A program made the position numbers and the translations under genes. The notes beneath the pieces were generated by a model. The model was not told the origin of the DNA. It worked only from the letters and a program-made list of their open reading frames with translations, and did not search any database. Source: Streptomyces nigrescens (GTDB taxonomy: Bacteria; Actinomycetota; Actinomycetes; Streptomycetales; Streptomycetaceae). Taken from it: a stretch of 64,000 nt of DNA. Where the stretch lies: NCBI GenBank assembly GCA_024349765.1, contig AP026073.1:1612001-1676000 (forward strand). Reading direction: 5' to 3'. This document shows, piece by piece, positions 49,042 through 56,973 of this stretch. Within the stretch, counting starts at the first letter, position 1. Each line of letters starts with the position of its first letter.

Positions 49042-49076
49042 GAGGCGGCCCGGGACCCGGTGTCCCGGGCCGCCTC
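49042..49076. terminator. Terminator between lgt and the CitE-like gene
   Basis: GAGGCGGCCCGGGAC (49042-49056) and GTCCCGGGCCGCCTC (49062-49076) form a perfect 15-bp stem with a 5-base loop. It overlaps the last stop codon of the convergent operon. Confidence 0.85.
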
Positions 49077-50133
49077 ATTGTCTGCGCTCGGCCAGCGACA
49101 GCACCCGCCGGGCGCCGGCCACCACGGCCGCGTCCACGAACCGCCCGTCCGCCAGCACCTGGGCCCCGCCGTCCGCGGCGGCCGCCCGGACGATCTCCGC
49201 CGCCGCCTCGATCTCCTCCGGCGAGGGGAGGTGGGCCGCTTCGATGACCGGCAGCTGGCGCGGGTGGATCGCCGCCCGGCCCAGGAACCCCATCGCCCGG
49301 CCCTGGGCGCAGGACCGGGCCAGGCCCTCCAGGTCGTGCACGTCCGGGTAGACCGACTGCGGCGGCGGTGCCAGCCCGGCCGCCCGGGCCGCGACCACGG
49401 CCCGGCTGCGCGGCCACGCCAGCCCCGCCTCGTCCCGTACCCCCAGCTCCGCCGCCAGGTCGGCCTCGCCGAGCGCGATCCCGCGCAGCGCCGGGTGGGC
49501 GGTGGCGATGACGAAGGCGTGCTCGATGCCGAGGGCGGACTCCAGCAGGGCGTAGAGCGCCGGGGTGGCGGGCAGCGCGCGGGTGGCCGGGCCGGCCGCG
49601 GGGGCGAGGGTGGCGGTGGCCGTGCCGGGGCCGGGCCGGGCGGTGCGGGGGCCGCGGGCGGTGCGTCCGGCGGCGAGCCGGCCGGTGAGGGCGGGCGCGG
49701 CCAGCGGTGTGGCGACCGGTTCCGCGAACCGTCCGCCGGCCGGCCCGCCGAGCGGCCCGGCGGCCGTCGTGGCCCAGCCCGCGGCCCGGCGGATGTCGGC
49801 CGGCCCCTGCACCTTGGGCAGCCGCAGCCCGGCCAGCCCCGGCAGCGCGGCGAGGGTGCGGATCTCGTGCTCGGCGAGCGGACCGTCCAGCGCGTTGACG
49901 CGGACGTGCACCGGCACCGGGCCCGGCGCCGGGTCGCTCAGCAGCTCGGCGGTGGCCCGCAGCGCGTACTCCTTGCGGTCCGGGGCGACCGCGTCCTCCA
50001 GGTCGAGGACCACCACGTCGGCCCCGCAGCCGAGCGCCTTGGCGACCGGCCCGGGCCGGTCGCCGGGCACATAGAGCCAGGTCAGCGGCGTCGCGACGGG
50101 GGATTCCTGGGGCATCGGCGGGGCCTTGGTCAC
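49075..50133 (-). CDS. CitE-like (HpcH/HpaI aldolase/citrate lyase) protein
   Basis: The 352-residue TIM-barrel protein is of the CitE type. Landmarks are WLYVPGDRPGPVAKAL, VVVLDLEDAVAPDRKE, HVRVNALDG, LRLPKVQGP and a metal-binding LGEADLAAELG. It probably cleaves or forms a carbon-carbon bond on an acyl-CoA thioester, which fits the CoA-transferase just upstream in the operon. Unusually, about 55 Ala/Gly/Pro/Arg/Thr residues are inserted between the PKV strand and the ALLESALG segment. The GTG at 50133 overlaps the CoA-transferase stop. It is the last gene of the six-gene operon. Confidence 0.8.
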   Translation of the reverse strand: MTKAPPMPQESPVATPLTWLYVPGDRPGPVAKALGCGADVVVLDLEDAVAPDRKEYALRATAELLSDPAPGPVPVHVRVNALDGPLAEHEIRTLAALPGLAGLRLPKVQGPADIRRAAGWATTAAGPLGGPAGGRFAEPVATPLAAPALTGRLAAGRTARGPRTARPGPGTATATLAPAAGPATRALPATPALYALLESALGIEHAFVIATAHPALRGIALGEADLAAELGVRDEAGLAWPRSRAVVAARAAGLAPPPQSVYPDVHDLEGLARSCAQGRAMGFLGRAAIHPRQLPVIEAAHLPSPEEIEAAAEIVRAAAADGGAQVLADGRFVDAAVVAGARRVLSLAERRQ

Positions 50134-51380
50134 AGCGCGCCCGCCTCCCGCAGTCCGGTGATCTCCCCTTCGTCCAGGCCGAGGGCGGCCAGTACCTCGT
50201 CGGTGTCCGCGCCGTGCGGGCGGCCGGCCCACCGGATGGCGCCCGGGGTTTCGGACAGCCGGAAGAGGACGTTCTGCATCCGCAGGGGGCCGAGCTCGTC
50301 GTCCGGGACCTCGGTGATCGAGCCCAGCGCCGCGTACTGCGGGTCCGCCAGCACGTCCCGGACGTCGTAGACGGGCGCGATCGCCGCCTCGGCCAGTTCG
50401 AAGGCGGCCAGCACCTCGGCCCGGTCGTGCCGGGCGATCCAGTCGCCGACCGCCGCGTCCAGCTCGTCGGCGTGCCGGGCCCGGCCGGCGCCGGTCGCGA
50501 ACCACGGCTCGTCGATCACCTCCGGCCGGCCGACCAGCCGCATCACCCGCTCCGCGACCGACTCGGCGGAGGTGGAGACCGCGACCCAGGAGCCGTCGGC
50601 GGTGCGGTAGGTGTTGCGCGGGGCGACGTTGGCGGAGCGGTTGCCGGTCCGCGGCTGGACGTGGCCGAGCTGGTCGTACCAGAGCGGGTGCGGGCCGAGG
50701 ACGGTCAGCAGCGGTTCGATCAGTGCCAGGTCGATGACCTGGCCGCGGCCGGTGGCCTCCCGCCCGCGCAGCGCGGCCATCACGGCGTACGACGCGGTGA
50801 GCGCCGCGATGCCGTCGGCGAGGCCGAACGGCGGCAGGGTCGGCGGCCCGTCCGGCTCGCCGGTGATCGCCGCGAAGCCGCTCATCGCCTCGGCGAGGGT
50901 GCCGAACCCGGCCCGCCGGGCGTACGGGCCGAACTGCCCGAAGCCGGTGACCCGGGCCAGCACCAGCCGCGGGTTGACCGCGGACAGCTCGGCCCAGCCC
51001 AGCCCCCATTTCTCCAGGGTTCCGGGCCGGAAGTTCTCGATGACCACGTCCGCCCCGGCGGCCAGCCGCAGCAGCACCTCCCGGCCGTCCGGATGGGACA
51101 GGTCGAGCGTCATGGTCCTCTTGTTGCGGCCCAGCAGCTTCCACCACAGCCCGACGCCGTCCTTGGCGGGTCCGTGCCCGCGCGCGGGATCGGGCCGGTG
51201 CGGATGCTCGACCTTGATCACCTCGGCGCCGAAGTCGCCGAGCAGGGTGGCGGCGAGCGGGCCGGCGAACAGCGTGGCGAGGTCGAGCACCCGCAGCCCG
51301 TCGAGCGGGCCGGGGGAGGGCGCGGCGTCCGGGCCGGCGGCAGCGGGCCGGGACATCCCGGACAGGGACGGGTCGGTCAT
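50130..51380 (-). CDS. CaiB/BaiF class III CoA-transferase
   Basis: The 416-residue protein moves CoA between carboxylic acids. It begins with the standard DGLRVLDLATLFAGPLAATLLGDFGAEVIKVEHP segment (residues 27-60; quoted in part), contains GRNKRTMTLDL and VVIENFRPGTLEKWGLG. The catalytic aspartate is expected in PPFGLADG near residue 189. The donor and acceptor acids are unknown. ATG at 51380 overlaps the stop of the preceding ADP-ribosylglycohydrolase-like gene, and its stop overlaps the CitE-like gene. Confidence 0.9.
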   Translation of the reverse strand: MTDPSLSGMSRPAAAGPDAAPSPGPLDGLRVLDLATLFAGPLAATLLGDFGAEVIKVEHPHRPDPARGHGPAKDGVGLWWKLLGRNKRTMTLDLSHPDGREVLLRLAAGADVVIENFRPGTLEKWGLGWAELSAVNPRLVLARVTGFGQFGPYARRAGFGTLAEAMSGFAAITGEPDGPPTLPPFGLADGIAALTASYAVMAALRGREATGRGQVIDLALIEPLLTVLGPHPLWYDQLGHVQPRTGNRSANVAPRNTYRTADGSWVAVSTSAESVAERVMRLVGRPEVIDEPWFATGAGRARHADELDAAVGDWIARHDRAEVLAAFELAEAAIAPVYDVRDVLADPQYAALGSITEVPDDELGPLRMQNVLFRLSETPGAIRWAGRPHGADTDEVLAALGLDEGEITGLREAGAL

Positions 51381-52891
51381 GGTGCGGTGACCTCCGGTCG
51401 GTCGGGCAAGGGGGCGACTCGGTCCGGGGGGACGACGAGCGCGGCGGTGCGGTGGGCGAGGGCGTCGAAGCCGATGCCGTCCAGCCCGCCGACGCTCGTG
51501 GCGAGCCGGTTGCGCAGCGGCGCGGTCCAGTGGCCGGGCAGCGCGTCCGGCGCGCCGGCGAGCAGCCCGGTCAGCGAACCCGCGGTCGCCCCGTTGGAGT
51601 CGGTGTCCCAGCCGCCGGACACCACCCGGCAGACCGAACCGGCGAAGTCGCCGTCGGCATGGGTCAGCGCCGCGGCCAGCAGCGCGGCGTTCGGCACCGC
51701 GTGCACCCAGTGGTGGTGGCCGTAGGCGGTGTGCAACTGGTCGGCGACGGCGGCGAATCCGGCCGGTGTGCGGTCCGGCGCCTCGCAGGCCAGGGCGATG
51801 CCGCGGCGGACCGCCCGGGCCAGCCGGGACCGGGGCGGTACCACCGCGAGCCCGGCCCGCAGCGCGCCGTGCACATCGGTGCCTCCCTCACCCCCGGCTT
51901 CGCTCGAGCGGGGGGACCCCCCTCCGGCCGCGGCCAGTGCGGCGGCCGTGAACATCGCCGCGTAGACGCCGTTGGCGGTGTGGCTGAGCGTGGCGTCCCG
52001 CCAGGCCAGCGCCGCGGCCGCGGCCGGGTCGCCGGGCCGGGTCCAGCCGAAGACGTCCGCCCGGATCTGCGCGCCGATCCACTCCCGGAACGGGTTGCGG
52101 TGGCGCGCGGTGTGCGGCGGCTCGATGCCGTCCAGCAGGTTGCGGTACGCGATCCGCTCCGCGGTGAAGGTCCGCCCGGCCGGCAGCTCGTCCAGCCACA
52201 ACCGGGCCACGTCGGCGGCGGTGAAGTCCGGCCCGTGCCGTTCGAGCAGCAGCAGGTTCAGCAGCGGGTAGTTGAGGTCGTCGTCCTCGGGCATCCCGTC
52301 GATGCTCCCGGCGAGCGAGGTGGCGCGGCTGCGGCGGTTCCACGGGTACCGCGCGGCCACCGCCGGATCGAGCCCCTCGTCGGTGAAGTACGAGGTCAGC
52401 GGCCAGTTCCCGGTCGCGCGGGCGAGCGCCCGGATACCGTCCAGCGGCAGCTTCTCCACGGGCTTGCCGAGCAGGCAGCCGGCCGCCCGCCCGAGCCAGG
52501 CGGCCTCCAGCCGGGCGGCGGCCGGCCCACCGGGGCCCGCGCCGGTCCGTGCCAACGGCCATGACGGACAAGCCGCCTGAATGGCTGTCAGATCCGTCGG
52601 CTCGTCAACCGCCAACGGGCTGGGCAGTGCGGCCAGTTCGTCGAGCAGGGCGGTCGCGGTGGCGCGCAGTTCCGGGTCCGCGGGGCGGTCCGAGGCGCCC
52701 GCCCGCTCCGGTGCCGGCGTCCCGCCCGCCGCCTGCCAGCGCCGCGCGATCCGGGCCACCGCGGCGGCGTCCCGGCCGTCCTCCGCCGCCTGCCGCAGCT
52801 CGTGCCCGAGCAGGTCCTCGGGCTGCACCCAGGTCAGCCGGAGCGGTGCGGCCGGGGCGGGCCGGGCGGCGGCCGGCGCCTTGGCCGTCAC
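51377..52891 (-). CDS. ADP-ribosylglycohydrolase-family protein, divergent (ARH-1)
   Basis: The 504-residue protein has an N-terminal extension of about 125 residues (LTWVQPEDLLGHELRQAAED) and then an ADP-ribosylglycohydrolase-type fold. In place of the usual TDDT metal motif it has MPEDDDLNY (200-208), and in place of the C-terminal GRDxD it has SGGWDTDSNGATAG (425-438). Three or more Asp/Glu are kept, so metal binding is plausible, but substrate may differ. A GC-palindromic insertion encodes residues about 322-338. GTG at 52891 overlaps the ARH-2 stop. Confidence 0.75.
   Translation of the reverse strand: MTAKAPAAARPAPAAPLRLTWVQPEDLLGHELRQAAEDGRDAAAVARIARRWQAAGGTPAPERAGASDRPADPELRATATALLDELAALPSPLAVDEPTDLTAIQAACPSWPLARTGAGPGGPAAARLEAAWLGRAAGCLLGKPVEKLPLDGIRALARATGNWPLTSYFTDEGLDPAVAARYPWNRRSRATSLAGSIDGMPEDDDLNYPLLNLLLLERHGPDFTAADVARLWLDELPAGRTFTAERIAYRNLLDGIEPPHTARHRNPFREWIGAQIRADVFGWTRPGDPAAAAALAWRDATLSHTANGVYAAMFTAAALAAAGGGSPRSSEAGGEGGTDVHGALRAGLAVVPPRSRLARAVRRGIALACEAPDRTPAGFAAVADQLHTAYGHHHWVHAVPNAALLAAALTHADGDFAGSVCRVVSGGWDTDSNGATAGSLTGLLAGAPDALPGHWTAPLRNRLATSVGGLDGIGFDALAHRTAALVVPPDRVAPLPDRPEVTAP
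51881..51925. repeat. GC-rich interspersed element inserted in-frame in ARH-1
   Basis: The minus strand reads GGTCCCCCCGCTCGAGCG followed by AAGCCGGGGGTGAGGGAGG. It encodes GGGSPRSSEAGGEGG-type residues in a loop of ARH-1. From memory, near-identical strings recur between and within genes in Streptomyces genomes. Confidence 0.5.
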
Positions 52892-54201
52892 CGTGCGCCC
52901 GCCTCCGCCAGGGCCGGGATGGCCGAGATCGCGGTGAACGCCTGCTCGTGGGTGCGGGCCCGGGCCCGGTCGCGGGTGAAGATCTCGCGGGCGACGGTCG
53001 CCAGCGCCGCGCCGGGGGCCTGCAGATCGAGGCGGCTGGCGCGGGCGACCTCGGCGCTCCACTCCTCGGGCACCGCCGAGGCGCCGCGCAGCGCACCGGC
53101 CAGCGCGCCGCTCATCGTGGCGATCGAGTCGCAGTCCCGGCCGTAGTTGACCGAGCCCAGCACGGTGGACCGGAAGTCGCCGCCGCCGACCAGCAACATG
53201 CCCAGTGCGATGGGGAGTTCCTCGATCGCGTGCAGCCGGGAGGGGCGGCGGGCGCCGAGCGAGGGGTTGCGGTAGTCCGGGCCGACGGTGTCGAACGGGG
53301 CGACCGCGGCCCGCAGCGGGGCCAGCGCCGACTCGTGGTCGCGCAGCGGTGCGGCCGCCTCGCAGACCGCCTCGATCGCGGCGCGGGTGCCGTCCTTCGC
53401 CAGCCGCAGGGCCTGCACGACGACCGAGGACGGGGTGGCGTCGGGCATGAACGCGGCGGCCACCGCCGCGGCGAACACCCCGGCCGCCTCCCGCCCGTAG
53501 GAGGACTGGTGCGCACCGGCGATGTCCAGCGCCTCGGCGTAGGCCCGGTCCGGATTACCGGCGTTGACCACGCCGACCGGCGCCATGTACATCGCCGCAC
53601 CGCAGTTGACGATGTTTCCGACGCCCGCCTCGCGCGGATCGGCGTGCCCGTAGTGCAGCCGGGCCACGATCCACTTCTCGGCGAGGAAGATCCGCTGCAG
53701 CGGCAGCGCCTCGGCCTCCAGCTCCGGGATCCAGCGCGGGGTGCCGATCAGGTCCGGGACGAGGTGGTCGGCGACGTCGTAGGCGTCGAGGTGGTCGCGC
53801 ACCGACTCGTAGACCCGGACCAGCGCATGGGTCATCAGGGTGTCGTCGGTGACGTGGCCGTTGCCCTTGTGGTAAGGCGCGAGGGGGCGGGCGGTGCGCC
53901 AGTCGTCGTGGAACGGGCCGACGATGCCGGTGACCCGGCCGCCGTACCGTTTGACGATCTCCTCCGGCGTCCGGCCCTCGACCGGACCACCGAGCGCATC
54001 ACCGACCGCGGCCCCCACCAGAGCGCCGATCGCCCGGTCCTCCAGGGAGGGGGCATCGGGCCTGACCGGCGGGGCGACCGGGGCGGCCGGTGTGGGCGGG
54101 GCGGACGCGACGGGGGTGACGGGCAGGATCTGGGTGTCCCCGACGCCGAGGACATCGGGCGCGCCCGGTGCCTTTGGTGCGGTGTCGCTGGTGTACGTCA
54201 T
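52888..54201 (-). CDS. ADP-ribosylglycohydrolase, canonical motifs (ARH-2)
   Basis: The 437-residue protein has a Pro/Ala-rich N-terminus of about 55 residues and then a complete DraG/ARH domain: GAAVGDALGGPVEG (64-76), metal motif VTDDTLM (117-123) and NYGRDCDSIATMSGAL (352-367) with the second metal-binding aspartates. Such enzymes remove ADP-ribose from proteins, nucleic acids or small molecules. The ATG at 54201 overlaps the ARH-3 stop, and its stop overlaps ARH-1. The natural substrate is unknown. Confidence 0.9.
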   Translation of the reverse strand: MTYTSDTAPKAPGAPDVLGVGDTQILPVTPVASAPPTPAAPVAPPVRPDAPSLEDRAIGALVGAAVGDALGGPVEGRTPEEIVKRYGGRVTGIVGPFHDDWRTARPLAPYHKGNGHVTDDTLMTHALVRVYESVRDHLDAYDVADHLVPDLIGTPRWIPELEAEALPLQRIFLAEKWIVARLHYGHADPREAGVGNIVNCGAAMYMAPVGVVNAGNPDRAYAEALDIAGAHQSSYGREAAGVFAAAVAAAFMPDATPSSVVVQALRLAKDGTRAAIEAVCEAAAPLRDHESALAPLRAAVAPFDTVGPDYRNPSLGARRPSRLHAIEELPIALGMLLVGGGDFRSTVLGSVNYGRDCDSIATMSGALAGALRGASAVPEEWSAEVARASRLDLQAPGAALATVAREIFTRDRARARTHEQAFTAISAIPALAEAGAR

Positions 54202-55499
54202 GTGCGGACGAGTCCTTCCACGAGGGGGGCGGGGGAGGGGGAGGGGTCCGGAGCGGCCTCCGGGGCGGCTCCGGGCGGGGCTGCGGGGCCGGTGCCCGCG
54301 GGGTCTTCCGGGGCGGTCAGCTCCGCCCGGGCCAGCGCGCCGGCCAGTTCGACGAGGTCGGTGCCGGCCAGCCGGGGCAGTGCGCAGCCGGACAGCACCC
54401 GGCAGGCGTCGCGCCAGGTGCGGGGCAGTCCGGGGGCACCGCCGAGCGCGCCGGTCAGCGCCCCGGCGAGGGCGGGCGCGGAGTCGGCGACCCGGGAGAG
54501 GCAGGCGGCGGCCGGCACGGCCTCGGCGACCTGCCCGTCGGTCGCGAGGGCCAGGGCCAGGGCCACCGGCACGGTCTCGGCGGCGGCGATGCCGTAGCTG
54601 TAGACGTGGTCGACGATCTCGTGCTCCAGCACCGGCACCAGGGCGAACGCGGTGCCGGGGCGGCCGGGCCGGTCGGCGGCGTGGGTCCGGGCGAGGTGGA
54701 CCGCGTGCAGGGCGTTGCGGCGGATCTCGGTGCCGTCGGGCAGCTGGGCCAGCGCGGTGTCGACCGCGGCGGACGCCGGGGCGCCGCCGAGCGCGGCGGC
54801 CACCGCGGCGGCCATCGCCCGGGCCCCGTGCACCCCGTCGCCGTCCTGGGTGTAGCGCGCGTCGTACTCGGCCAGGTCCGCCGCCGCGGCCGGGTCGCCC
54901 GGGTGCACCACGGCCAGGACGGCGGCCCGGACGCACGCCGCGTCGTCGAAGAAGTGCGGGTTGTCGTGGCCGGTGGCGGGCGGCCGCAGCCCGGCGGCGA
55001 GGTTGCCGAGCCCGGCGCGTACGGAGATCCGGGCGCGCAGCGGCAGGACGGCGGACTCCACCTCGGGGGCCCGGTCGGCGGCCGCGGCGACCTCGCTCGC
55101 CAGTGCGTTCCAGGCGAGGTCGAGGGCGGCCCGCATCCGGCGGCTCCGGCCCAGGTCGCTGAGCAGCGCCCCGGCCGCGGTCAGCACGGACCCGGCGGTG
55201 AAGGCCGCCCACTCGGCGTCGTCGGACGGGCCCAGCCGCAGCGGCTCGGGCGGCTGGTTCAGGGCGATCGGCACCGGCAGGGTGGTGGTGGCGTTCTGCT
55301 CCGCGAAGGTGTCCAGCTCGCGGGTGAGCCGCCGGGTCCACTCCGGCATCCGCGCCGCCCGGTGCCGGGCCGCGGGCCACCCGGCGGCGTCCCCCGCGGC
55401 CAGCCCGAGCAGCAGCCCCTCGATCCGGCCGTGCGCGGCGTCCACGGGCCCGCCGGCGCCCGTCCCGCCACCCACCCGGCCGCTCATCCCGTGGCTCAT
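54198..55499 (-). CDS. ADP-ribosylglycohydrolase-family protein, probably degenerate (ARH-3)
   Basis: The 433-residue protein has the ARH fold start EGLLLGLAAGDAAGWP (27-42), but the metal motif reads PSDDAEW (91-97) and the second motif reads LSRVADSAPALAGALTGALGG in part (334-354), losing the first aspartate of GRDxD. One acidic pair is kept, so hydrolase activity is doubtful and a regulatory or partner role is possible. The ATG at 55499 overlaps the ARH-4 stop. The C-terminal 40 residues are Pro/Ala-rich. Confidence 0.75.
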   Translation of the reverse strand: MSHGMSGRVGGGTGAGGPVDAAHGRIEGLLLGLAAGDAAGWPAARHRAARMPEWTRRLTRELDTFAEQNATTTLPVPIALNQPPEPLRLGPSDDAEWAAFTAGSVLTAAGALLSDLGRSRRMRAALDLAWNALASEVAAAADRAPEVESAVLPLRARISVRAGLGNLAAGLRPPATGHDNPHFFDDAACVRAAVLAVVHPGDPAAAADLAEYDARYTQDGDGVHGARAMAAAVAAALGGAPASAAVDTALAQLPDGTEIRRNALHAVHLARTHAADRPGRPGTAFALVPVLEHEIVDHVYSYGIAAAETVPVALALALATDGQVAEAVPAAACLSRVADSAPALAGALTGALGGAPGLPRTWRDACRVLSGCALPRLAGTDLVELAGALARAELTAPEDPAGTGPAAPPGAAPEAAPDPSPSPAPLVEGLVRT

Positions 55500-56671
55500 C
55501 CCGGCCCCACCCCGGCGCCGGCCTGCGCCCCGGTGGCTCCGGCCCCGGGAACGGGCCACGCCCCGGGGGACGCCCCGGACGGGCCCCCGCCCGCCCCGCC
55601 CGGTGCCAGCAGGTCGGCGATGTCCAGAACGTGGTAGCCGGCCATCGACGGCAGGCAGCTGCCGCGGGCCGGGCCGATGGCGCGGGCCCAGTCCTCGGGG
55701 ATCGCGGTGGCCCCGCCCAGGGCTCCGGCGAGGGCCCCGGCGACCGCGGCCGTGGTGTCGGCGTCCCGGCCCATGTTGACCGCGGTCAGCACCGAGCCCC
55801 GGAAGTCGCCGCGGGCCGCCGCGAACGCCCCGAAGGCCAGCCCGACCGCCTCCGGCGCCAGGTCCGTCCAGGGATAGCCGCCGACCACGACGGCGGAGCG
55901 CACCGCGCGTTCCGTACCGAGCTGGGTGATGCCCGGATCGTGGCCGCAGCGCTGGGCCGCGGCCACCGCCCGGCGCAGCGAGCGGGCGGTCCAGGAGTCC
56001 TCCGGGACGACGGACAGCGCGGCGGCGAGCACCACGTCGGTGAGCGGCGTCCCCCCTGGCCCGGAGCGCGCCGAGGGCCCCGGGGGGAGGGCGACCATCG
56101 CGGCGGCGACCCCGGCGGCCACCGCCCGGCCGCCGTAGATCCCCTCGCCGTCATGGCTGACCGTGCCGTCGATGGCGACCAGCCGGGCGGCCTCGGCGGG
56201 CCGGCCGGCCGCGAACACCCCGAACGGCGCGGCGCGCATCGCCAGCCCGTCGCTCCAGGCGTGCCGGTGCTGCGCGGAGATCGGGGCGGCCAGGCCGCGC
56301 CGCAGGTTCTCCAGGGTGCCGCGCTCGCTGAAGCCGGCGCCGCGGAACGGGCCCTCGTCCCGGTCGGCGATCCACTGGTGCCAGGCCGCCTCGACGTCCG
56401 CGACGGTCAGTGCCGAGCCGTGCGCGGCCAGCAGCAGCCCGGAGAAGATCGCGTACTCGGTGTCGTCGGTGCCGGCCGGGTCGTCCTCGACATAGCCCTC
56501 GATCCGGCCCCAGCGGCGGCGGATCTGCGAGGGCTTCATGTTCTCCGCGGGGGCGCCCAGCGCGTCCCCCACGGCGAGCCCGAGCAGCGCCCCGCGGGCC
56601 CGGTCGCGTACGCCGTCGCCGGCCGGGCCCGGGGCGCCCGGCTCCGGGGACGGGGGGTCCGCTGCGCTCAT
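55496..56671 (-). CDS. ADP-ribosylglycohydrolase, canonical motifs (ARH-4)
   Basis: The first gene of the operon encodes 391 residues. The full ARH domain has GALLGLAVGDALGAPAENM (27-45), metal motif TDDT (68-71), SHDGEGIYGGRAVAAG (172-187) and NMGRDADTTAAVAGALAG (299-316). The metal sites are intact, so ADP-ribose hydrolysis is likely. A low-complexity Gly/Pro/Ala tail follows. A GC palindrome encodes residues about 195-208 (LPPGPSARSGPGG). ATG at 56671 was chosen as the only start near the conserved domain; a weak GGAGG lies upstream. Confidence 0.9.
   Translation of the reverse strand: MSAADPPSPEPGAPGPAGDGVRDRARGALLGLAVGDALGAPAENMKPSQIRRRWGRIEGYVEDDPAGTDDTEYAIFSGLLLAAHGSALTVADVEAAWHQWIADRDEGPFRGAGFSERGTLENLRRGLAAPISAQHRHAWSDGLAMRAAPFGVFAAGRPAEAARLVAIDGTVSHDGEGIYGGRAVAAGVAAAMVALPPGPSARSGPGGTPLTDVVLAAALSVVPEDSWTARSLRRAVAAAQRCGHDPGITQLGTERAVRSAVVVGGYPWTDLAPEAVGLAFGAFAAARGDFRGSVLTAVNMGRDADTTAAVAGALAGALGGATAIPEDWARAIGPARGSCLPSMAGYHVLDIADLLAPGGAGGGPSGASPGAWPVPGAGATGAQAGAGVGPG
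56050..56088. repeat. GC palindrome inside the ARH-4 gene
   Basis: TCCCCCCTGGCCC (56050-56062) and GGGCCCCGGGGGGA (56075-56088) are near-perfect arms around a 12-base centre. The stretch encodes a Pro/Gly-rich loop in ARH-4 and is unlike the flanking coding sequence. Confidence 0.5.
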
Positions 56672-56973
56672 GGTGCTATGCGTGCCACGCGGCGCCCCGG
56701 CTCTCCTGCGCGGGGCCGCGAGGTCACCCGGTCGACGCCCCGGCCGGGACGCCCCTACGAACCCCCGAGGGAACCACGAGCGGGCCCGCAAGCGGCCCGA
56801 TCACCGCCCGTGACCGGCCTCCCATTCCCGACTTTTTGAAGAAGCCGCAGGTCAGCGCGGTAAGTTCGGCCTTCCTTGCTAGCGGCGGAGGGTGCTCCCC
56901 GCATAACTTCGAGGGGTTGCAGGGGGAAGTGCCGCCATCGGCCCACACCTCGCGGAAGGGAGCAGGTCCCGAT
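56672..56973. other. Divergent spacer between the ARH operon and the metal transporter gene
   Basis: The 302 bases contain no gene that I can support. They must carry the promoters of both the six-gene minus-strand operon and the VIT1-type gene. A short partial hairpin (GCGGAGGG...CTCCCCGC, about 56883-56900) lies ahead of the transporter; I could not match it to a known metal-sensing RNA. Confidence 0.5.

What the first reader, a model, noticed from the sequence alone, without database searches (positions are those of the whole stretch)
49075..56671. Operon of four different ADP-ribosylglycohydrolase-family proteins with a CoA-transferase and a CitE-like lyase
Six minus-strand genes are joined by 4-base ATGA/GTGA overlaps, so they are almost certainly one transcript. 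Four encode ARH/DraG-family proteins that differ widely from one another. Two keep the full metal motifs (TDDT 68-71 and GRDAD 301-305 in ARH-4; TDDT 118-121 and GRDCD 354-358 in ARH-2). ARH-1 has EDDD and WDTDSNG instead. ARH-3 has PSDD and SRVAD, losing a metal aspartate. A mix of active-looking and altered copies in one operon, followed by acyl-CoA enzymes, suggests a pathway for a specific ADP-ribose- or nucleoside-linked compound, not general protein de-ADP-ribosylation. That is inference; I know no described system of this composition.
Basis: partly seen in the sequence, partly recalled or inferred. Interest (0 to 1): 0.75.

Follow-up and report, generated by a model that had tools for sequence, protein, structure and literature searches.

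The report
Probable ribose-conjugate breakdown operon in Streptomyces
A row of six soil-bacterium genes looks like a shortened copy of a widespread gene set that takes up an unknown ribose-containing compound and breaks it down, using an enzyme family better known for removing ADP-ribose from proteins.

Summary
In detail: six minus-strand genes (49075-56671), five 4-base ATGA/GTGA overlaps, four PF03747 proteins, a CoA-transferase, a CitE-like lyase. Relatives have a longer row: LacI repressor, two sugar-ABC permeases, binding protein, ARH-4, -3, -2, -1, ribokinase, CoA-transferase, lyase. One Streptomyces has all of these at the window's own site between VIT and lgt; the window lacks regulator, transporter and kinase. 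Of eight kinases from such rows, two pass the curated ribokinase cut-off. A related set (LacI, permeases, ARH-2, mostly an ARH-1-like protein, often CoA-transferase and lyase) lies on alphaproteobacterial plasmids. Best reading: a catabolic operon for a ribosylated organic acid; ARHs release ribose, ribokinase phosphorylates it, transferase and lyase break the acid. ARH-1, -2 and -4 keep their metal motifs almost without exception in 89-103 orthologues. ARH-3 groups with ARH-4 but lacks the catalytic Glu and a metal Asp; it accompanies ARH-4 in 95 of 95 loci with ARH-4: probably a non-catalytic partner. The substrate is unknown, no activity is shown, and ADP-ribosyl substrates are not excluded. 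Ten searches of an open-access library showed no description.

The parts
55496..56671 (-). ARH-4: ADP-ribosylglycohydrolase-family hydrolase, complete motif set (Glu43, TDDT 68-71, DADT 303-306)
   Evidence: PF03747 191.1 bits; in 89 aligned orthologues Glu43 in 83 of 83 with a residue there, T68 88, the other motif residues 89
54198..55499 (-). ARH-3: relative of ARH-4 without the catalytic Glu (Ala44), with SDDA for TDDT and VADS for DADT; probable non-catalytic partner
   Evidence: PF03747 121.7 bits; 0 of 67 orthologues with a residue there have Glu; first Asp of the third motif is V, L or N in 88 of 88; groups with ARH-4; model pLDDT 72.5, pTM 0.77, top PDB matches ARH3, loosely superposed
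52888..54201 (-). ARH-2: complete motif set (Glu75, TDDT 118-121, DCDS 356-359); the ARH lineage shared with alphaproteobacterial operons
   Evidence: PF03747 183.5 bits; T118, D119, D120, T121, D356, D358, S359 in 103 of 103, Glu75 in 99 of 99 with a residue there; joins four alphaproteobacterial sequences at 100/99 support
51377..52891 (-). ARH-1: variant motif set (Glu146, EDDD 202-205, DTDS 429-432) with an extra N-terminal region of about 125 residues
   Evidence: PF03747 148.3 bits; Glu146, D203, D204, D205, D429, D431, S432 in 102 of 102, E202 in 101; model pLDDT 81.2, pTM 0.86, top PDB match DraG
50130..51380 (-). CoA-transferase family III (CaiB/BaiF)
   Evidence: PF02515 420.6 bits; closest NCBIfam models succinate--glutarate and formyl-CoA transferases, all below cut-off
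49075..50133 (-). CitE-like acyl-CoA lyase
   Evidence: PF03328 104.7 bits; closest NCBIfam model RipC/Ccl (itaconate degradation C-C lyase), below cut-off
51377..51380 (-). junction ARH-1/CaiB: the place where a PfkB/ribokinase gene lies in 58 of 105 loci; absent here
56672..56931 (-). upstream region: the side on which LacI, two permeases and a binding protein lie in 27 of 105 loci; absent here, the divergent VIT gene follows
   Evidence: S. daqingensis L112 has them between VIT and ARH-4

Best explanation
The six genes are a reduced copy of a catabolic operon whose full form is LacI repressor, sugar-type ABC importer (two permeases and a binding protein), four ARH proteins, ribokinase, family III CoA-transferase, CitE-like lyase. 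The importer brings in a compound that carries ribose. The metal-dependent ARHs (ARH-4, -2, -1) hydrolyse its ribosyl bonds, each a different bond or a different member of a family of compounds; ARH-3, a relative of ARH-4 without catalytic residues, acts as a structural or binding partner. Ribose goes to ribose-5-phosphate. The released acid is joined to CoA by CaiB and split by the CitE-like enzyme, probably into acetyl-CoA and a 2-oxo acid. In the window's genome the operon's regulator, transporter and kinase are missing; a related orphan transporter and the ordinary rbs ribokinase elsewhere in the genome could serve instead. Shown: gene set, order, conservation, motif state, family assignments. 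Inferred: substrate, every enzymatic step, the role of ARH-3, the stand-in transporter and kinase.
For: Of 104 loci fetched for holding ARH-1 plus the window, 95 have all four ARHs together, 99 CaiB and CitE, 58 the kinase, 27 LacI with the ABC genes, 16 everything from LacI to CitE. S. daqingensis L112 has the complete set at the window's site between VIT and lgt; L177 has only the transporter there. The kinase passes the ribokinase equivalog cut-off of 299.65 in L112 (309.2) and L083 (307.6) and falls 1 to 9 bits short in L050, L045 and L160; the two LacI proteins scanned score best, below cut-off, with ribose repressor RbsR. Related operons: 12 alphaproteobacterial plasmid loci with LacI, permeases and ARH-2, 11 with an ARH-1-like protein, 7 with CaiB; Deinococcus with LacI, ABC, ARH, ribokinase, ARH; Mycolicibacterium with LacI, ARH, ABC, ribokinase. 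In 246 genomes of the class, 42 of 43 with an ARH-1 orthologue also have ARH-3, against 2 of 203 others (counted by eye). Close CaiB relatives elsewhere lie with CitE and a membrane protein that Pfam calls DctM in the two scanned. ARH1 and ARH3 hydrolyse only alpha-linked ADP-ribose and bind its distal ribose through the metals (PMC6309922, passages).
Against: No substrate or activity is known. The window genome lacks the operon's regulator, transporter and kinase, so import there is not shown; its orphan binding protein (about 60% identity) belongs to a paralogous transporter with its own conserved surroundings, since one genome has both. ARH-1 and the binding protein co-occur only moderately in the genus (111 both, 39 ARH-1 only, 24 binding protein only, 25 neither; Fisher two-sided p 0.0016, phylogeny not corrected). 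Three Streptomyces keep the ARHs without CaiB/CitE, and L046 has its ARH row without them. CaiB and CitE pass no NCBIfam cut-off, and CaiB relatives of 60% identity or more occur in at least 15 genomes without an ARH-1 orthologue, so the pair is not specific to this pathway. The motif sets of ARH-1, -2 and -4 would also suit ADP-ribosyl substrates. Six of eight kinases from ARH rows miss the ribokinase cut-off.
Confidence: 0.6

Rival explanations
1. A set of ADP-ribose erasers: the ARHs remove ADP-ribose from proteins, nucleic acids or O-acetyl-ADP-ribose, and the CoA enzymes are passengers.
For: Most named solved relatives are ADP-ribosyl hydrolases; motif sets of ARH-4 and ARH-2 match the published ARH1/ARH3 patterns; an ARH-1 paralogue in Streptomyces lies beside a NUDIX gene (Pfam) and one that looks like Sir2.
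Against: LacI, sugar ABC and ribokinase in the longer rows of relatives; no PADLOC family; far below the DraG and Tri1 cut-offs. I did not search for ADP-ribosyltransferases or macrodomains; none is named in the annotated neighbourhoods.
Confidence: 0.15
2. The reduced Streptomyces version works inside the cell, salvaging or detoxifying a self-made ribosylated metabolite, whatever the ancestral operon did with imported compounds.
For: 65 of 105 loci lie complete between VIT and lgt without LacI or ABC genes, 62 of them with CaiB, and the ARH motifs stay conserved in a set made up largely of such loci.
Against: 111 of 150 Streptomyces genomes with ARH-1 hold a related binding protein somewhere.
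Confidence: 0.25
3. The sugar is not ribose: the ARHs open another furanoside or N-glycoside and the PfkB kinase acts on that sugar.
For: PfkB kinases are variable; the L159 (189.6), L062 (274.7) and L193 (279.4) kinases fall well below the ribokinase cut-off; one ARH-1-like row (L062) has an alpha-amylase-family gene nearby.
Against: Two kinases pass the ribokinase cut-off; LacI is nearest RbsR; known ARHs recognise ribofuranose.
Confidence: 0.2

Closest known systems
DraG / ARH1 / ARH3 (ADP-ribosylglycohydrolase family, PF03747)
   Same: Family score and, in ARH-4 and ARH-2, the complete Glu ... [T/S]DDT ... DxD[T/S] metal set; PDB matches (ARH-4 by sequence; ARH-3 and ARH-1 by fold)
   Different: In relatives part of a sugar-catabolic gene row, four different copies together, one without catalytic residues; below the DraG equivalog cut-off (77.5 and 59.2 against 337 bits)
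Classical rbs operon (RbsR, RbsABC, RbsK)
   Same: LacI-type repressor, ABC import, ribokinase; the window's genome appears to have one too (L173)
   Different: Different permeases and binding protein (MalF/MalG type), ARHs, CoA-transferase and lyase
Staphylococcal ARH-permease-ribokinase gene row (PMC3637587, PMC3900703, passages read)
   Same: ARH beside a permease and a ribokinase
   Different: One ARH, a cytosine/purine-type permease, no CoA enzymes named; the passages give no function
Bacteroides ribose-scavenging (rus) loci
   Same: Recalled, from no call: ribokinase loci that can carry ARH genes
   Different: Recalled: outer-membrane uptake of Bacteroidota and nucleoside enzymes; the paper I looked for is not held
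Citramalyl-CoA pathways (CoA-transferase plus RipC/Ccl or CLYBL lyase)
   Same: Same two protein families
   Different: No hydratase gene in the row, scores below cut-offs, joined to ARHs and ribokinase

Membership tests
PF03747 ADP-ribosylglycohydrolase family | Pfam gathering score | tested here: met
   191.1, 121.7, 183.5 and 148.3 bits against 26.2
PF03747 ADP-ribosylglycohydrolase family | catalytic Glu and binuclear metal motifs in ARH-4, ARH-2 and ARH-1 | tested here: met
   ARH-1 has EDDD for [T/S]DDT, all Asp kept
PF03747 ADP-ribosylglycohydrolase family | catalytic Glu and binuclear metal motifs in ARH-3 | tested here: not met
   Ala44 for Glu, SDDA for TDDT, VADS for DxD[T/S]; published work on ARH1 and ARH3 found activity lost on mutating a single Mg ligand
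DraG (ADP-ribosyl-[dinitrogen reductase] hydrolase) | NCBIfam TIGR02662 equivalog cut-off | tested here: not met
   ARH-4 77.5 and ARH-2 59.2 bits against 337.05; ARH-3 and ARH-1 no match
Tri1-type ADP-ribosylarginine hydrolase | NCBIfam NF041672 equivalog cut-off | tested here: not met
   20.6 to 54.3 bits against 490 for ARH-4, -3, -2; ARH-1 no match
Ribose catabolic operon (longer row of relatives) | ribokinase equivalog TIGR02152 | tested here: inconclusive
   met in L112 and L083; short in L050, L045, L160, L193, L062, L159; the window genome's own rbs kinase (L173) is at the cut-off, 299.8 against 299.65
Ribose catabolic operon (longer row of relatives) | ribose formed and used | not testable with these tools
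   needs enzyme assays
Citramalyl-CoA lyase RipC/Ccl | NCBIfam NF038242 cut-off | tested here: not met
   139.8 bits against 375
Succinate--glutarate CoA-transferase | NCBIfam NF052585 cut-off | tested here: not met
   247.5 bits against 750
Anti-phage defence system | match to a PADLOC model | tested here: not met
   0 of 6 proteins at E 0.01

The most novel reading that the evidence does not exclude
There is an unrecognised class of soil and plant-associated metabolites in which ribofuranose is joined, by alpha-O-glycosidic or 1-O-acyl bonds, to small hydroxy-dicarboxylic acids (malate or citramalate type). Bacteria of at least two phyla eat them with one conserved pathway: LacI-controlled ABC import, ARH-fold ribosyl hydrolases, ribokinase for the sugar half, CoA-transferase plus lyase for the acid half. 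ARH-3 would be a conserved pseudo-hydrolase subunit of ARH-4.
Probability: 0.22. Interest if true: 0.8.

Novelty: new variant of a known kind. Interest (0 to 1): 0.6.

Why it matters
ARH-fold enzymes are usually read as erasers of ADP-ribosylation, and many bacterial copies are named so. A cross-phylum operon in which several of them belong to a sugar-uptake and CoA pathway would mean that part of the family may be ordinary ribosyl hydrolases, would give a handle on an unknown compound shared by actinomycetes and rhizobia, and would supply a natural series from active ARH to pseudo-enzyme. Each step is directly testable with purified proteins.

Tried and rejected
Protein de-ADP-ribosylation or defence: no PADLOC match, scores far below DraG and Tri1; kept as a rival. 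A recent or strain-specific cluster: rejected by conservation. 'The transporter moved elsewhere in the genome': rejected as stated, because one genome holds both the operon copy and the orphan copy; kept as a possible stand-in. CaiB/CitE as markers specific to this pathway: rejected, because close CaiB relatives occur without ARHs. The large FGE-domain protein found in 7 of 105 loci gave no substrate hint: only its C-terminal FGE-sulfatase domain is recognised. Ten paper searches (the last and on side questions) listed no paper that I recognised as about this gene row; only titles and abstract starts of the listed part were seen, and the library is open-access only. Passages read and not used further: PMC10434189 (an ARH gene in a hemin locus), PMC8883491 (review of ADP-ribosylation). 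The 'motif decay' reading of ARH-1 was rejected by its invariance.
Full report
What is there. The window lies in a Streptomyces chromosome: a 9.33 Mb assembly with nine PF03747 matches, four of them here. The genus is inferred: G302, called 'same genus', has a 635,696-base contig with the same gene row as NZ_QLLY01000002.1 of Streptomyces sp. PsTaAH-137, of the same length. Six minus-strand genes run without a gap from 56671 to 49075, each overlapping the next by ATGA or GTGA. They stand between a divergent VIT-family gene (PF01988) and lgt, with gltB and trpBA beyond (named from sequence, not scanned). One transcript is likely but not shown.

The row is a remnant. Order is almost fixed: ARH-4, -3, -2, -1, then kinase, CaiB, CitE; L058 is rearranged. 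All four ARHs: 95 of 105; the other ten end within 124 bases (nine) or 859 bases (L055) of the last ARH seen. CaiB and CitE: 99 of 105; of the six without, L086, L091 and L102 have the ARHs alone, L046 has other genes there, L073 and L139 end. A PfkB kinase between ARH-1 and CaiB: 58. LacI, two permeases and a binding protein upstream of ARH-4: 27. Everything: 16. These counts are conditional on ARH-1 and lean to Streptomyces. S. daqingensis (L112) has the complete row at the window's own site; L177 has only the transporter there. The window's six genes are therefore best read as the reduced state. Pfam confirms LacI, SBP_bac_1, two BPD_transp_1 and PfkB in L050.

Wider spread. In 246 genomes drawn from the class, 50 match ARH-1 at 1e-10; by my reading of the table 43 hold an orthologue of 55% identity or more (G131 by a fragment at a contig end). 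Of the 43, 42 have ARH-3 at 1e-15 and 43 a CaiB of 65% identity or more; of the other 203, 2 have an ARH-3-like gene and at least 15 a CaiB of 60% or more (counted by eye; only about 7 candidates per genome are scored, so absences are soft). Outside the class, ARH-2 matches 22 plasmid records: 20 alphaproteobacterial, Nonomuraea (an actinomycete) and Halalkalicoccus (an archaeon). I fetched 12 of the 20 (L192-L203; ARH-2 at 42-53% identity): LacI, two permeases and ARH-2 in 12 of 12, an ARH-1-like protein with a long C-terminal extension in 11, CaiB in 7, CitE beside it in at least 5 of the 7, a ribokinase next door in 2, a fragment of one in a third. Tree support for ARH-2 joining four alphaproteobacterial sequences is 100/99. 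Deinococcus aetherius has LacI, ABC, ARH, ribokinase, ARH; Mycolicibacterium arabiense LacI, ARH, ABC, ribokinase; a Rhizobium plasmid an ARH-like gene behind a BMP-family importer. Not every homologous transporter goes with ARHs: the nearest Deinococcus binding protein (41%) has none annotated beside it.

State of the ARHs. Rack et al. 2018 (PMC6309922, passages read) give the metal motifs as E ... SDDT ... DSDS (ARH1) and E ... [T/S]DDT ... DTDT (ARH3), report loss of activity on changing a single Mg ligand, and state that only alpha-linked ADP-ribose is hydrolysed. ARH-4 and ARH-2 fit. ARH-1 has EDDD ... DTDS with Glu146; its five Asp are present in 102 of 102 orthologues. ARH-3 has Ala44 for the Glu (Glu in 0 of 67 with a residue there), SDDA (Ala in 88 of 89) and V, L or N for the first Asp of the third motif (88 of 88); 89 orthologues were aligned. 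ARH-3 and ARH-4 group together (95/97; the tree is unrooted). Relatives show steps: L075 and L076 keep Glu and TDDT but have Gln for that Asp, L062 lacks all three. ARH-4 was never without ARH-3 (95 of 95), and ARH-3 is strongly conserved, so this is not simple decay; a partner or ligand-binding role is inferred. Models: ARH-3 pLDDT 72.5, pTM 0.77, poorly predicted at 61-91 and 145-183; ARH-1 81.2, 0.86. Foldseek ranks ARH3 first for ARH-3 and DraG for ARH-1, with query TM-scores of only 0.38-0.51 and, for ARH-3, rmsd near 9-12 A, so metal geometry cannot be judged. Among weaker matches are two subunits of large complexes, 8xks_Q and 6sga_FP; that these are non-catalytic is recalled.

The sugar half. 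Of eight kinases from ARH rows, two pass the NCBIfam ribokinase cut-off (L112, L083), three are within 9 bits (L050, L045, L160) and three lower (L193, L062, L159). The two LacI proteins scanned score best with RbsR, far below its cut-off. A published staphylococcal row of ARH, permease and ribokinase (PMC3637587, PMC3900703; passages) is an independent link between ARH and ribokinase.

The acid half. CaiB and CitE pass no equivalog cut-off; the nearest models are succinate--glutarate CoA-transferase and the citramalyl-CoA-type lyase RipC/Ccl. The plasmid CitE is nearest, among solved structures, to the human mitochondrial CitE-like protein 5vxc, which I recall as CLYBL. I looked at 18 stretches around close CaiB relatives, 15 from genomes without an ARH-1 orthologue: in three (L211, L212, L221) CaiB-CitE is followed by a membrane protein that Pfam calls DctM in the two scanned, and those two come from genomes whose ARH row shows no CaiB beside it (L073, cut by its contig end, and L046); in about 13, by eye, there are hydantoinase-, cyclase-, MmgE/PrpD- or flavoprotein-like genes, Pfam-checked in L208 only. 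This suggests a small di- or hydroxy-carboxylic acid for the pair and shows that it is a reusable module.

The window's own genome. It has a related transporter (MalF 73%, MalG 67%, binding protein 60%) as an orphan at C1 about 5.464-5.468 Mb, a paralogue rather than the moved operon copy, and a row that looks like an rbs operon with a ribokinase at the cut-off. In 199 Streptomyces genomes ARH-1 and the binding protein co-occur in 111 (39 ARH-1 only, 24 binding protein only, 25 neither; two-sided Fisher p 0.0016, phylogeny not corrected).

Verdict. A real, widely conserved operon whose full form is best read as a ribose-conjugate uptake and breakdown pathway; the window holds a shortened version. 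Substrate and activities are unknown. ADP-ribosyl substrates remain possible, since ARH-1, -2 and -4 keep the residues that known ADP-ribosyl hydrolases use for their metals.

Noticed in passing
L172:9517-12625 (window genome C1 about 5.464-5.468 Mb): Orphan sugar-ABC permeases and binding protein related to the operon's transporter, in similar surroundings in several other Streptomyces stretches, without ARHs.
   Followed up: partly
L064:9682-12079; L065 and L066 similar: A Streptomyces paralogue of ARH-1 beside a NUDIX gene, and in L064 a gene that looks like Sir2: a possible NAD/ADP-ribose link for that paralogue.
   Followed up: no
49075-50133: The window's CitE has an Ala/Gly/Pro-rich stretch of about 70 residues (119-191) that does not align with solved relatives; the median length of 14 orthologues aligned is 288 aa against 352 here.
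   Followed up: no
L062:16014-17969: A 651-aa PF03747 protein that begins like a secreted protein, beside genes that look like a ribose-type ABC importer and an alpha-amylase-family protein.
   Followed up: partly
L050:6208-8124: A 638-aa protein with an unrecognised N-terminal part and a C-terminal FGE-sulfatase domain inside the operon in 7 of 105 loci; in L057 it seems fused to the kinase.
   Followed up: partly
L208:4083-15822 and similar in L205, L206, L213-L217, L219, L220: Recurring gene cluster with CaiB, CitE, cyclase, MmgE/PrpD, flavoprotein, hydantoinase-like and Asp/Glu-racemase-like genes, which shares the CoA module; I did not search for a description of it.
   Followed up: partly
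L204:2057-10023: Halalkalicoccus plasmid: ARH-2-like gene next to IclR, two mandelate racemase-family genes and a tripartite tricarboxylate transporter.
   Followed up: no
L086, L091, L102: Three Streptomyces keep the four ARHs between VIT and lgt but have no CaiB, CitE or kinase there.
   Followed up: no
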